Both the position numbers and the translations under genes were made by a program. From Rhodobacter ferrooxidans (GTDB lineage Bacteria > Pseudomonadota > Alphaproteobacteria > Rhodobacterales > Rhodobacteraceae), in the NCBI RefSeq assembly GCF_000176015.1, contig NZ_ACYY01000003.1, positions 1 through 64,000 on the forward strand: a stretch of DNA of 64,000 nt, given 5' to 3'. Shown here piece after piece: positions 39,370-42,575 of this stretch. Below the pieces are notes generated by a model that searched no databases, was not told where the DNA came from, and saw nothing but the letters and a program-made list of their open reading frames with translations. Within the stretch, counting starts at the first letter, position 1; every line of letters starts with the position of its first letter.

Positions 39370-39999
39370 TCAGCCGACGATGGTGGCTTCGGTGGCGGCG
39401 CGCAGCTCGGCCTCGGTGACGCCATCTGCGATTTCGACGATGTGCAGGCCTTTGTGCCCGACATCCAGCACCCCGAGGTTGGTGATGATGCGGTCCACCA
39501 CGCCCTTGCCGGTCAGCGGCAGCGTGCAGGCGTGCAGCACCTTCGATTCGCCGTGTTTGGAGGTGTGGTCCATCACCACCACCACCCGGCCGACGCCCGC
39601 CACCAGATCCATCGCGCCGCCCATGCCCTTGACCAGTTTGCCGGGGATCATCCAGTTGGCCAGATCGCCGGTCTCGGACACTTCCATCGCGCCGAGGATT
39701 GCCATGGCGATCTTGCCGCCGCGGATCATCGCAAAGCTTTGGGCGCTGTCGAAGAACGCGGTCTGCGGCAGTTCGGTGATGGTCTGTTTGCCGGCGTTAA
39801 TCAGGTCGGGGTCTTCCTCGCCTGCGAAAGGGAAGGGGCCCATGCCCAACATGCCGTTTTCCGATTGCAGGGTGACGTTGACCCCCTCGGGGATGTAATT
39901 GGCCACCAGCGTCGGGATGCCGATGCCGAGGTTGACATACATGCCGTCGCGCAGTTCCTGTGCGGCGCGGGCGGCCATCTGATTGCGGTCCCAGGGCAT
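39370..39999 (-). CDS. scoB: 3-oxoacid CoA-transferase subunit B
   Basis: 209 residues from the ATG complementary to 39997-39999. The B-subunit catalytic Glu is in LQSENGMLGMG (about residue 51), with GIGIPTLVANYIP before it and a C-terminal TEAELRAATEATI. It transfers CoA between succinyl-CoA or another acyl-CoA and an acetoacetate-type acid. Unusually, it is separated from scoA by two genes of the GSCFA and SGNH-like families in the same direction. Confidence 0.92.
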   Translation of the reverse strand: MPWDRNQMAARAAQELRDGMYVNLGIGIPTLVANYIPEGVNVTLQSENGMLGMGPFPFAGEEDPDLINAGKQTITELPQTAFFDSAQSFAMIRGGKIAMAILGAMEVSETGDLANWMIPGKLVKGMGGAMDLVAGVGRVVVVMDHTSKHGESKVLHACTLPLTGKGVVDRIITNLGVLDVGHKGLHIVEIADGVTEAELRAATEATIVG

Positions 40000-40001
40000 C
40001 G

Positions 40002-40814
40002 TCAAACCTCCGTGTCGGATTGCGGGATGGGTGCCGGGGAAGGTCCACGGCGGATAAGGTCGTGCAGCGCCGTCAGGCACAGCGTGCCATAGGCGGCGTT
40101 CATGTGGGCGTGGTCGCCGCGCAGGTGTTCCTGACCCGGAACCACGCCGCCGCCCGTCGCCAGAAACCTGGCCTCGGTCAGGCCGCTGGGGCGCAGGCTT
40201 TGCGGCGGCTGCCGCAGCAGGGTGATGCCGACCCCGGCCAGATCGGCCCTGAGGTGGTCAAAGAAGATGTCAAAGGCGGCAAGTGCGCCATCCGGGGCCG
40301 CGGCCAGCCGCTGCCAACTGGCGAAATCGGCGTTGCTGGAGCCGAGGCAGGTCTCGCAGGTGGCGGCCTGCGCCAGAAAGATCGGCGCGGCCCCCGGCCA
40401 ATGCCGCCATTCCGGGCCGGGCCGCAAGGCGCGCGCCAGTGCGGCACAGATCGCGTCGAACAGATCGCGGCTGAGCAGGGTGGGCGCGCCGGTCAAGCGC
40501 AGCCCGTCGATGTCGCAGGTGGCGATCAGTTGGGCGATGGCGCCGGGGTTCCAGCCGAACGCCGAAAGCACCACCTGATCCACCCCGGAAAGGTCGATCT
40601 GCAACGCGCCGTTCAGCTTTTGCACGATCTCGGCATGGCGGCCGCGCTGGGGGGCGGGCAGGCCGTAAACCCGGTTCGGTTGCAGCGCGAACTGGCGAAA
40701 GTTGCGTTGGGGGGCGGCAAAGAACGTCATGTCAAGGCCGGGCAGCGGGGTAGCATCCCAGGCGGCCTTCAGCGCCGCGACATGCGAATTGCCGATGATC
40801 GCCACTTTGGTCAT
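40002..40814 (-). CDS. SGNH-hydrolase-like protein, unknown function
   Basis: 270 residues. The start MTKVAIIGNSHVAALKAAW has the block I pattern GNSH found in SGNH-like proteins, and near the C-terminus HLRGDHAHMNAAYG supplies a His. No signal peptide is seen. Its stop is 2 bp before the scoB start codon and its start overlaps the GSCFA gene by 4 bp, so the four genes are very likely one operon. Substrate unknown; polysaccharide or glycolipid modification is possible but not shown. Confidence 0.6.
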   Translation of the reverse strand: MTKVAIIGNSHVAALKAAWDATPLPGLDMTFFAAPQRNFRQFALQPNRVYGLPAPQRGRHAEIVQKLNGALQIDLSGVDQVVLSAFGWNPGAIAQLIATCDIDGLRLTGAPTLLSRDLFDAICAALARALRPGPEWRHWPGAAPIFLAQAATCETCLGSSNADFASWQRLAAAPDGALAAFDIFFDHLRADLAGVGITLLRQPPQSLRPSGLTEARFLATGGGVVPGQEHLRGDHAHMNAAYGTLCLTALHDLIRRGPSPAPIPQSDTEV

Positions 40815-41839
40815 CGGGCGAAAGCCTCCAGCAGGGCGTCTTCGCAGCGCGGGTCTTCGCCGGGGTCGGCGGCTTGCGCAGCGGTGGGATGCAGGCCGTG
40901 GCCATTCAGAAACAGCTCCATCGCCGCCGCAACCCCCAGTTCCGAGACCGACCGCTGGTTGGCCTCGAAATACGCGCCACGGCTGTTTTGCGAGGTGATC
41001 AGTTCGTAGGACGGGAAATAGTCGATCTCGGGGTGGCGCTGAACCAGCATGCCGCAGACCGCGCGCAGCACCGATTTGGAATAGCAGGTGGCGACTTCGA
41101 CGTGCTGGCCGCTGGCGGTGGCGGTCAGGGGCACCGGCGAGACGGTGATCACCAGCTTCACCCGGCGGTTGACCTTGCGCAACGCCTTGAGAAAGCTTTC
41201 GAAATCCCGCAGAACCTCCAGCGCGTTGAAGTTGCGGAAACTGTAAAGCGCCGGGTCATGGGTGCCGGCAATGGTGCCCGGTGCGGTCGGGAACACCGTG
41301 CCGGAGGCGGTATGCACCCAGGCTTCGGTCAGCCCGAAAGTGAAAACCAACAGATCGGCGGCACGAAAGGCGGCCTGCACCCGGGTCAGGTGATGCGCGC
41401 GGTGGCGCAGCACCGCCTCGGCGCTGGCATGGCCCCTGGGGTCAACGCCGGGGCGCTGGGCGTCGAAGAACCGGCCGTCGCGCTGCCAGACCCGGTCTTG
41501 CGGGATATGCGTGCCCTCGGCCTCGCGCCAAAGCTGCAACAATTGCGCGGCGGTGTAGATATTGCCGTAGCGCGCCGAATAAAGCCCGTAGCCGTGGTCA
41601 TGCGCCAGCGCCTCGGGCACGGTGGCGGGCAGGGGTTCGGCGTCGATCACCCGCAGACCGGCCTGGCGCAGCGACCGCCCGATGTGCTGGGCAAAGCAAC
41701 TGCCCGCAGTCGCCACCTGCATGCGCGGGGTGACGGCAAAGCGCGGGGTGTAAAGCGCACCGGGGTCCAGCGGCGCCCGCTCGGCCACACCGCTGCGCCA
41801 ATAGGACCGCGCCGGCAGGTTCTCGTAAGGTGATGCCAT
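40811..41839 (-). CDS. GSCFA-domain protein
   Basis: 342 residues from the ATG complementary to 41837-41839. The family signature lies near residue 45: ATAGSCFAQHIGRSL, followed by DHGYGLYSARYGNIYTAAQLLQLW, TFGLTEAW and a C-terminal LNGHGLHPT. GSCFA proteins belong to an SGNH-like fold and are common in Rhodobacterales, often close to glycan-related genes; no activity is firmly established. It is coupled (ATGA overlap) to the SGNH-like gene downstream and follows scoA by 37 bp. Confidence 0.82.
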   Translation of the reverse strand: MASPYENLPARSYWRSGVAERAPLDPGALYTPRFAVTPRMQVATAGSCFAQHIGRSLRQAGLRVIDAEPLPATVPEALAHDHGYGLYSARYGNIYTAAQLLQLWREAEGTHIPQDRVWQRDGRFFDAQRPGVDPRGHASAEAVLRHRAHHLTRVQAAFRAADLLVFTFGLTEAWVHTASGTVFPTAPGTIAGTHDPALYSFRNFNALEVLRDFESFLKALRKVNRRVKLVITVSPVPLTATASGQHVEVATCYSKSVLRAVCGMLVQRHPEIDYFPSYELITSQNSRGAYFEANQRSVSELGVAAAMELFLNGHGLHPTAAQAADPGEDPRCEDALLEAFAR

Positions 41840-41876
41840 TGCTTGCCCCCCGTGCCCCCGTGTCCTCTTGCCCGCG

Positions 41877-42575
41877 TCAGCCGCGCGGCCGGGTGGTACG
41901 GTTCTCGATGCGCTTCTCGTGCTGGCCCTGGATGATGCGGTGCACATAGATGCCGGGCAGGTGGATGGAGTCGGGGTCCAGCGCGCCCAGCGGCACGATC
42001 TCTTCGACCTCGACCACGCAGACCTTGCCGCAGGTGGCGGCGGGCGGGTTGAAGTTGCGGGCGGTCTTGCGGAACACGAGGTTCCCCGAGGGGTCGGCCT
42101 TCCAGGCCTTGACGATCGACAGGTCCGCCACGATGCCACGTTCCAGAATATAGGTCGCACCGTCGAAATCGTGATGCTCCTTGCCCTCTGCGATCACCGT
42201 GCCGACGCCGGTCTTGGTATAGAAGCCGGGAATACCGGCGCCACCGGCACGCATCCGCTCGGCCAGGGTGCCTTGCGGGTTGAACTCCAGCTCCAGCTCG
42301 CCCGACAGGTATTGGCGCATGAATTCGGCGTTTTCGCCAACGTAGGAGGAGATCATCTTCTTGACCTGCCGGGTTTCCAGCAGCACGCCAAGGCCGAAAC
42401 CATCGACCCCGGCGTTGTTCGAGGCCACGGTCAGGTTCTTGGTGCCCGCATCATGAATCGCCGCGATCAGCAGTTCGGGGATGCCGCACAGCCCAAAGCC
42501 ACCGCTGGCGATCAGCATGCCGTCAAACAACAACCCGTCCAGTGCTGCCGCCGCACTGGGGTAGATTTTCTTCAT
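41877..42575 (-). CDS. scoA: 3-oxoacid CoA-transferase subunit A
   Basis: 232 residues from the ATG complementary to 42573-42575. GMLIASGGFGLCGIPELLIAAI, NLTVASNNAG, and AGIPGFYTKTGVGT are typical of the A subunit, which with ScoB makes a succinyl-CoA:3-ketoacid-type transferase. First gene of the scoA-GSCFA-SGNH-scoB unit. Upstream is a 134-bp gap to tRNA-Leu. Confidence 0.92.
   Translation of the reverse strand: MKKIYPSAAAALDGLLFDGMLIASGGFGLCGIPELLIAAIHDAGTKNLTVASNNAGVDGFGLGVLLETRQVKKMISSYVGENAEFMRQYLSGELELEFNPQGTLAERMRAGGAGIPGFYTKTGVGTVIAEGKEHHDFDGATYILERGIVADLSIVKAWKADPSGNLVFRKTARNFNPPAATCGKVCVVEVEEIVPLGALDPDSIHLPGIYVHRIIQGQHEKRIENRTTRPRG

What the first reader, a model, noticed from the sequence alone, without database searches (positions are those of the whole stretch)
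39370..42575. CoA-transferase subunit genes separated by GSCFA and SGNH-like genes
scoA and scoB are normally adjacent. Here two genes of hydrolase-like families lie between them, with overlapping or 2-bp joins, so all four are very likely one transcript. A transferase or esterase step linked to acyl-CoA chemistry (for example acyl modification of a glycan or polymer) is possible.
Basis: partly seen in the sequence, partly recalled or inferred. Interest (0 to 1): 0.5.

Follow-up and report, generated by a model that had tools for sequence, protein, structure and literature searches.

The report
Two-part enzyme cassette inside scoAB
A two-gene cassette, probably a two-part enzyme that adds or removes acyl groups on sugars, sits in a spot between two CoA-transferase genes that related bacteria fill with quite different genes; one of its proteins looks like a former enzyme that nearly always travels with a working partner.

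Summary
In detail: scoA, GSCFA, SGNH-like and scoB form one minus-strand run (one join is 37 bp). The order occurs in 13 genera of the family sample, this one included, and in 11 further named loci. A link to CoA-transferase chemistry is not supported. (1) The scoA/scoB junction is a cargo slot: of 205 resolved pairs 156 are adjacent and 44 carry an insert: LOV kinases (14), GSCFA-SGNH (10), small genes, single enzymes. (2) GSCFA-SGNH is a self-standing module, mostly outside sco: 182 of 194 GSCFA ORFs have SGNH adjacent. Eleven of the 12 others are contig ends, fused or divergent SGNH, WcbI, or an alpha/beta-hydrolase-like partner. (3) This GSCFA class has lost the catalytic His (present in 1 of 194) that partnerless GSCFAs keep (25 of 26); the SGNH partner keeps Ser and His. 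Best reading: a two-subunit cytosolic O-acyltransferase or esterase on glycans, catalysis in a swappable partner, GSCFA as helper subunit. WcbI, a CoA-binding capsule protein said to need an unidentified partner, is adjacent or fused to GSCFA in 2 of 9 WcbI-bearing genomes. Function is inferred.

The parts
41877..42575 (-). scoA, 3-oxoacid CoA-transferase subunit A
   Evidence: PF01144 E 4e-74; TIGR02429 above cut-off
41840..41876 (-). 37-bp scoA-GSCFA intergenic stretch; upstream edge of the slot
   Evidence: sequence
40811..41839 (-). GSCFA protein of the partnered class: predicted SGNH fold, Cys48 at the nucleophile position, catalytic Asp/His positions 294/297 are Asn/Ser
   Evidence: PF08885 E 3.1e-52; model pLDDT 94.4; VIA-align rows; column counts
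40002..40814 (-). SGNH-like partner: Ser10, Asp234, His237 conserved; overlaps GSCFA by 4 bp
   Evidence: model pLDDT 91.2; VIA-align best Z 11.1; conservation
39370..39999 (-). scoB, 3-oxoacid CoA-transferase subunit B, the only copy found in the genome
   Evidence: TIGR02428 above cut-off

Best explanation
The run is an ordinary scoAB operon whose A/B junction has been used as a cargo slot; the cargo here is a self-standing two-gene enzyme. In that enzyme the SGNH-like protein is the catalytic subunit (Ser10-Asp234-His237). The GSCFA protein is a degenerate SGNH fold: Cys at the nucleophile position, catalytic His lost. It acts as a near-obligate non-catalytic subunit, for example by presenting the sugar acceptor or shaping the active site. 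Neither protein shows an obvious signal peptide (judged by eye), so it should act in the cytosol, most likely as an O-acyltransferase or O-acyl esterase on glycan precursors or surface glycans. SHOWN: gene order, slot use, pairing, residue loss; fold by prediction. INFERRED: physical complex, catalysis, glycan substrate, independence from CoA-transferase activity.
For: Pairing: of 194 GSCFA ORFs (189 distinct) 182 have the SGNH gene within 300 bp on the same strand, 157 downstream and 25 upstream, also in loci titled Pseudomonas, Arthrobacter, Rhizobium, Opitutaceae. The 12 others: 2 at contig ends (L024, L208); 1 fused to an SGNH-like C-terminus, by eye (L194); 1 next to a divergent SGNH (L197); 2 next to or fused with WcbI (L097, L138); 5 next to or fused with one alpha/beta-hydrolase-like family (L052, L212, L219, L225, L226); 1 with none (L185). 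Residue loss: His297 in 1 of 194 partnered ORFs against 25 of 26 unpartnered ones; the partner keeps Ser10 182/185, His237 182/185, Asp234 167/185. Fold: the 50 VIA-align rows shown for GSCFA (of 133 with Z 8 or more) are esterases, lipases or O-acetyltransferases, mostly titled GDSL/SGNH type. End offsets to Axe2 (model 34..321 to 1..218) put Cys48 on Ser15 and residues 294/297 on Asp191/His194, which entry titles name as catalytic mutants. Slot. Glycan context: GT1, GT2, GT10, GT92, Sulfotransfer_3, FkbM and pyruvyl-transferase genes beside pairs in other hosts.
Against: No activity or complex is shown. 43 of 80 named loci have no same-strand neighbour within 120 bp by my gene calls, and only some of the other neighbours were scanned, so the substrate is weakly supported. 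GSCFA keeps invariant Ser47-Cys48, Glu172, Lys255 and Arg296, more than a pure scaffold needs; His246 is present in 185 of 194 and might replace the lost His. Of 185 partner rows three lack Ser10 (a gap, an X, a Leu) and three lack His237 (one is cut off). L185 has GSCFA in the slot with no partner in view; L128 is partnered and keeps His297. Foldseek alone gave the partner no match under E 0.001.
Confidence: 0.6

Rival explanations
1. GSCFA is still an enzyme: the catalytic His has moved from position 297 to 246, with Cys48 as nucleophile, and the pair carries out two chemical steps (for instance acyl transfer by one, hydrolysis or proofreading by the other).
For: Ser47-Cys48 invariant in 194 of 194; His246 in 185 of 194 partnered ORFs, where 23 of the 27 sequences of the comparison set have Asp. 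Glu172, Lys255, Arg296 invariant.
Against: His246 is S, Q, D or N in 9 of 194; distances in the model could not be measured (no coordinates on hand). A separate hydrolase-like partner accompanies nearly every member.
Confidence: 0.22
2. One reading: the four genes are one functional unit, the CoA-transferase supplying or recycling an acyl-CoA used by the GSCFA/SGNH pair.
For: Four-gene order in 13 family genera and 11 further named loci, one of them (L154) with scoB cut by the contig end; tight joins; GSCFA also occurs with WcbI, which binds CoA (PMC4104973 passages).
Against: Only 13 of 112 family GSCFA ORFs of this class lie in the slot, one more on a cut contig. The slot holds unrelated cargo in others and stacks cargo (LOV kinase plus pair in L005; VOC gene plus pair in L183). 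A single clade of slot GSCFAs is rejected (p-AU 0.004, quick tree). 156 of 205 scoA-scoB pairs have a gap under 60 bp.
Confidence: 0.12
3. The placement is passive: the junction tolerates insertions because flanking genes are expressed steadily, and nothing selects the particular cargo.
For: Diverse cargo, some without a callable gene (4 of 15 fetched short inserts).
Against: The cargo genes read are on the sco strand, and two cargo types recur (14 LOV kinases, 10 GSCFA pairs of 44 inserts), so selection for co-expression or shared ancestry is likely. This rival is compatible with the best explanation of the module itself.
Confidence: 0.3

Closest known systems
GSCFA family (Pfam PF08885), SGNH clan
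   Same: Family match and predicted SGNH fold; a 2022 review lists it with no known activity and no structure (PMC9487903, passages).
   Different: The partnered class has lost the catalytic His that unpartnered GSCFAs keep and is genetically tied to a second hydrolase-like protein; the searches (open-licence PubMed Central only) showed no report of this in their listings.
WcbI (PF18588), capsule biosynthesis, CoA-binding
   Same: Sugar acetylation is proposed and a partner protein is said to be missing (PMC4104973, abstract and passages); WcbI is adjacent or fused to a partnered-class GSCFA in 2 of 9 WcbI-bearing family genomes.
   Different: The window's partner does not match the WcbI model up to E 10; it has GNSH where WcbI-like proteins seen here have GNCQ.
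Asp2 of the accessory Sec system (O-acetyltransferase on GlcNAc)
   Same: One alternative GSCFA partner (L226) matches Asp2 weakly (E 0.0011, below cut-off); Asp2 O-acetylates GlcNAc on a glycoprotein (PMC7948813, abstract).
   Different: Match below the curated cut-off; accessory Sec genes were not searched for.
PatA/PatB, OatA, AlgX-type O-acyltransferases
   Same: Catalytic domains of PatB and OatA are among the fold matches.
   Different: Those work outside the membrane with a membrane acyltransferase partner or domain (recalled); none was seen among the neighbours scanned.
PAF-acetylhydrolase alpha1/alpha2
   Same: Two SGNH-type subunits forming a dimer (PDB 1fxw title).
   Different: The title calls that heterodimer catalytic; here one subunit appears degenerate.
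scoAB (3-oxoacid CoA-transferase) operon
   Same: Both subunits intact by family models.
   Different: Genes split by a two-gene cassette; 156 of 205 resolved pairs in the family have a gap under 60 bp.

Membership tests
3-oxoacid CoA-transferase (scoA/scoB) | Both subunits pass the NCBIfam subfamily cut-offs | tested here: met
3-oxoacid CoA-transferase (scoA/scoB) | Subunit genes adjacent (usual, not strictly defining) | tested here: not met
   gap of 1877 bp between the matches
GSCFA family PF08885 | Pfam gathering score and GSCFA motif | tested here: met
   178.1 bits against 25; GSCFA motif in 194 of 194 aligned ORFs
SGNH hydrolase (GSCFA protein, as an active enzyme) | Catalytic Asp-x-x-His near the C-terminus | tested here: not met
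   Asn294 and Ser297 in the window; His297 in 1 of 194 relatives
SGNH hydrolase superfamily (GSCFA protein, as a fold) | SGNH fold | tested here: met
   predicted model; VIA-align best Z 11.7, 182 aligned, rmsd 4.0; Foldseek 7 matches under E 0.001
SGNH hydrolase superfamily (partner P0003) | SGNH fold | tested here: met
   predicted model; VIA-align best Z 11.1, 185 aligned, rmsd 4.4; Foldseek alone gives no match under E 0.001
SGNH hydrolase superfamily (partner P0003) | Match to a Pfam SGNH-clan model above cut-off | tested here: not met
   best is PF19040 at E 0.065, 13.4 bits against 27
SGNH hydrolase superfamily (partner P0003) | Nucleophile Ser in block I and Asp-x-x-His in block V | tested here: met
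   S10 182/185, D234 167/185, H237 182/185
SGNH hydrolase superfamily (partner P0003) | Oxyanion-hole Gly and Asn of blocks II and III | tested here: inconclusive
   Column 85 is Gly in 143 of 185 but Ala in the window; no Asn column resolved
WcbI PF18588 (partner P0003) | Match to the family model | tested here: not met
   no match up to E 10
MBOAT/AT3-coupled O-acyltransferase | Membrane acyltransferase encoded next to the SGNH protein | tested here: not met
   of the neighbours, scoA, scoB, an SLT, a PUCC and an AsnC-type protein were scanned; a partner elsewhere is not excluded
Glycan O-acyltransferase or esterase | Activity on an acylated or acceptor glycan | not testable with these tools
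   needs assay

The most novel reading that the evidence does not exclude
The His-less GSCFA class is a general non-catalytic subunit of two-component glycan acyltransferases whose catalytic module is swappable between three types (SGNH, WcbI, alpha/beta-hydrolase-like). It would then be the missing partner that WcbI was said to need.
Probability: 0.35. Interest if true: 0.8.

Novelty: new variant of a known kind. Interest (0 to 1): 0.6.

Why it matters
A 2022 review lists GSCFA among the SGNH families with no known function or structure (PMC9487903, passages). A fixed partner, a lost catalytic residue that tracks with that partner, and two substitutes for the partner give it a directly testable role: a subunit of a two-part sugar-acylating enzyme. 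They also suggest where to look for the partner that WcbI seemed to lack. Separately, a two-gene enzyme operon whose middle is repeatedly used to carry unrelated genes is an unusual kind of genomic slot, and it warns against reading function from gene neighbours there.

Tried and rejected
Considered and dropped: (i) the pair as part of ketone-body metabolism (see rivals). (ii) Phage cargo: no GSCFA relative in 50,697 phage records at E 1e-5; integrases or transposases were not searched for. (iii) A single insertion of the pair into the slot: 26 slot rows of 153 fall into groups of 21 (in a clade of 23, support 88), 3 (of 4, support 96) and 2 (support 67); one clade is rejected, p-AU 0.004. The slot label was set by gene order before the tree, but it is a quick tree without bootstrap, and entry and exit cannot be told apart.

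Led nowhere: papers on a sco insertion hotspot (one hit, on human transposable elements, listing only); sco with GSCFA or SGNH (nine listed, none opened); LOV kinase with CoA-transferase (none); LOV/HWE kinases in Roseobacter (none). Solved relatives by sequence: best E 0.0097 for GSCFA and 0.12 for the partner (a GDSL-family esterase, 27 residues), neither convincing. The GSCFA paper listing had 7 papers; only the SGNH review was opened. Absence of a family from the VIA-align lists says nothing.

Limits. The slot count covers 201 of 295 genera: place lists stop at 150 rows and favour close relatives, two genomes (G060, G145) had the two genes on different contigs, and the rest were not resolved. 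Of the 44 inserts, 2 (G003, G074) were not fetched and 4 short ones gave no callable gene. LOV kinase identity was tested with Pfam for one (L237); the other 13 were assigned by similarity of the translations. Some weaker or fragmentary GSCFA places (for instance G087:C82, G082:C8, G144:C5, G209:C4) were not fetched. The unpartnered set is 26: 20 fetched from the weaker places, plus 6 others; not all. Partner lists for it rest on the SGNH profile, the alpha/beta profile and a GNCQ motif scan. An earlier count gave His297 as 0 of 194; one search corrected this to 1 (L128). Gene calls in related loci come from a home-made codon model trained on these genes; it misses some genes (it called L212 alone although a 1059-aa ORF ends 15 bp upstream), so neighbour counts are approximate. 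Organism labels such as Sporosarcina or Prochlorococcus may be contaminated assemblies; this was not checked.
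Full report
WHAT IS THERE. Four genes lie on the minus strand: scoA (42575-41877), GSCFA (41839-40811), an SGNH-like gene (40814-40002) and scoB (39999-39370). The two CoA-transferase subunits pass their NCBIfam cut-offs and GSCFA passes Pfam PF08885. The third protein has no family match at 1e-3; its best Pfam lead is the SGNH model PF19040 at E 0.065, below cut-off. Joins are 37 bp, a 4-bp overlap and 2 bp, with GGAGG before the last two starts. One scoB relative was found in the genome at E 0.001, so this split pair is presumably the working enzyme.

THE ORDER IS CONSERVED, BUT AS ONE CASE OF A SLOT. In one genome per genus of the family (295 searched), scoB and scoA relatives at E 1e-60 or better occur in 268 and 266 genomes. 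Place lists stop at 150 rows; with two follow-up searches I had both coordinates for 203 genomes and resolved 205 scoA-scoB pairs in 201 of them. Of these, 156 have a gap under 60 bp, 5 have 60-150 bp and 44 have more. The 44 inserts are: 14 LOV-type histidine kinases of about 340 aa (one confirmed by Pfam as PAS plus HATPase; the rest by similarity); 10 GSCFA-SGNH pairs, one with an extra 77-aa gene; 10 small genes of 69-90 aa; one YCII-domain gene; a methyltransferase; a TOD1/MUCI70-type glycosyltransferase; a GH9 glycoside hydrolase; 4 short inserts without a callable gene; and 2 not fetched. Three further genera with the pair in the slot (G270, G218, G259) came in by the GSCFA route, giving 13 genera in all, the window's included, plus G158, where a LOV kinase and the pair stand behind scoA on a cut contig. 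Among 80 named loci, 13 have GSCFA next to sco: L216 has the same GSCFA as a family locus, L185 (Celeribacter) lacks the SGNH gene, and in L154 scoB is cut by the contig end. In many of these loci the upstream gene is a DNA topoisomerase I-like protein (cluster c4, 21 loci; identity recalled from its first residues), so the surroundings are conserved while the cargo changes.

THE CARGO HAS ARRIVED OR LEFT MORE THAN ONCE. In a tree of 153 GSCFA sequences the 26 slot rows need at least 5 changes of label (4 forced by well-supported branches; shuffled mean 24.3). They fall into groups of 21, 3 and 2, with non-slot rows nested in the first two. One clade is rejected (p-AU 0.004, quick tree). The label is thus strongly clustered, yet not of one origin.

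GSCFA AND SGNH ARE A NEAR-OBLIGATE PAIR. Of 194 GSCFA ORFs of this class (112 from the family, 82 from named loci; 189 distinct), 182 have the SGNH gene within 300 bp on the same strand, 157 downstream and 25 upstream. The named loci include Pseudomonas, Arthrobacter, Rhizobium and Opitutaceae titles. The 12 exceptions: L024 and L208 are cut by contig ends. L194 is fused to a C-terminal stretch with GNS and HLN motifs, read by eye. L197 has a divergent SGNH at E 1.2e-8. L097 has a WcbI gene 28 bp upstream, itself cut by the contig end, and L138 has a WcbI domain fused in front. L052, L219, L225 and L226 have an adjacent or fused protein of one alpha/beta-hydrolase-like family (three of the pairwise comparisons: E 8e-22, 2e-34 and 9e-43), and in L212 the same domain ends a 1059-aa protein that looks, by eye, like a glycosyltransferase in its first part. 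A profile of these five finds, over all loci then held and at E 1e-8, only those five (one of them held twice) and one weak case, L192, at E 5e-10. L185 has no partner in view. WcbI is rare in the family, 9 of 295 genomes. Two of the 9 copies sit with GSCFAs that lack SGNH; the 7 others have no GSCFA within the stretches fetched.

THE PARTNERED GSCFA HAS LOST ITS CATALYTIC HISTIDINE. Predicted structures are confident (pLDDT 94.4 and 91.2) and both match SGNH enzymes (for the partner Foldseek alone is weak). End offsets in the VIA-align rows put GSCFA Cys48 on the nucleophile (Axe2 Ser15; CE3 esterase Ser10, both named as mutated in entry titles) and residues 294 and 297 on Axe2 Asp191 and His194. 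This assumes no gaps between those sites and the aligned ends. Position 297 is His in 1 of 194 partnered ORFs (L128), most often Ser (100); position 294 is Asn in 143 and Asp in 41. In 26 unpartnered GSCFAs, including the second GSCFA of the window's own genome (contig C53), 25 have His297 and 25 have Asp294 (a 27th sequence, L254, proved partnered). The partner keeps Ser10 in 182, His237 in 182 and Asp234 in 167 of 185. So loss of the His goes with possession of a partner that has a complete-looking site. Against a mere scaffold: Ser47-Cys48, Glu172, Lys255 and Arg296 are invariant in 194 of 194, and His246 is present in 185 of 194 where most of the comparison set has Asp.

WHAT IT PROBABLY DOES. 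Where the pair has a close same-strand neighbour outside sco (24 of 80 named loci), I scanned neighbours in seven: six gave glycan families above cut-off (GT1 and GT2 in L202; Sulfotransfer_3, GT2 and FkbM in L219; Sulfotransfer_3 in L198; polysaccharide pyruvyl transferase in L230; GT10 in L184; GT2/GT92 in L171) and L225 a sulfotransferase just below cut-off. L183, in the slot, has a GT2-type gene behind scoB. These seven were picked because they looked glycan-related; the other neighbours were not scanned and several look unrelated (acetyltransferases, DNA methylases). 43 of 80 loci have no close neighbour by my gene calls. The context is therefore suggestive only. In part of the family a SASA-esterase plus RTX-repeat protein lies by the pair (cluster c9, 9 loci). 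WcbI binds CoA and acetyl-CoA and serves capsule biosynthesis; its authors found no transferase activity and proposed a partner that presents the acceptor (PMC4104973, abstract and passages). I infer a cytosolic two-subunit O-acyltransferase or esterase on glycans, with the SGNH, WcbI or alpha/beta-hydrolase-like protein catalysing and GSCFA assisting. The review of SGNH enzymes lists GSCFA with no known activity and no structure (PMC9487903, passages), and a profile search of PDB sequences found no convincing relative.

VERDICT. The more interesting result is the pairing rule of GSCFA and the cargo slot in scoAB.

Noticed in passing
Slot regions L005, L038-L043, L235-L242: LOV-type histidine kinases sit between scoA and scoB in 14 family genera (and behind scoA in G158); a possible light input into this operon.
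   Followed up: partly
window 36561, 36883, 37400, 37941 (minus strand): Four Flp-pilin-like small proteins sharing ESGAV(T/M)VDWVVLTA lie in a row near a CpaB-like gene (names recalled); similar small proteins lie near sco in several relatives.
   Followed up: no
G000 contig C53, locus L260 1480-2472: The genome has a second GSCFA gene, of the unpartnered type that keeps the DxxH histidine, next to a CTP synthase-like gene (identity recalled) and a 257-aa protein without Pfam match at E 0.1.
   Followed up: partly
L081:7557-9119 and other loci with cluster c9: A SASA-type esterase carrying RTX calcium-binding repeats lies by the GSCFA-SGNH pair in several genera.
   Followed up: partly
L057:3127-4728 (G186): Two extra SGNH-partner genes in tandem directly behind scoB, in addition to the pair in the slot.
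   Followed up: no
window 42807-44210 (minus) and 42710-42794 (plus): A PUCC-family gene (PF03209) and a tRNA-Leu(TAA) lie upstream of scoA, where many relatives have a topoisomerase I-like gene.
   Followed up: no
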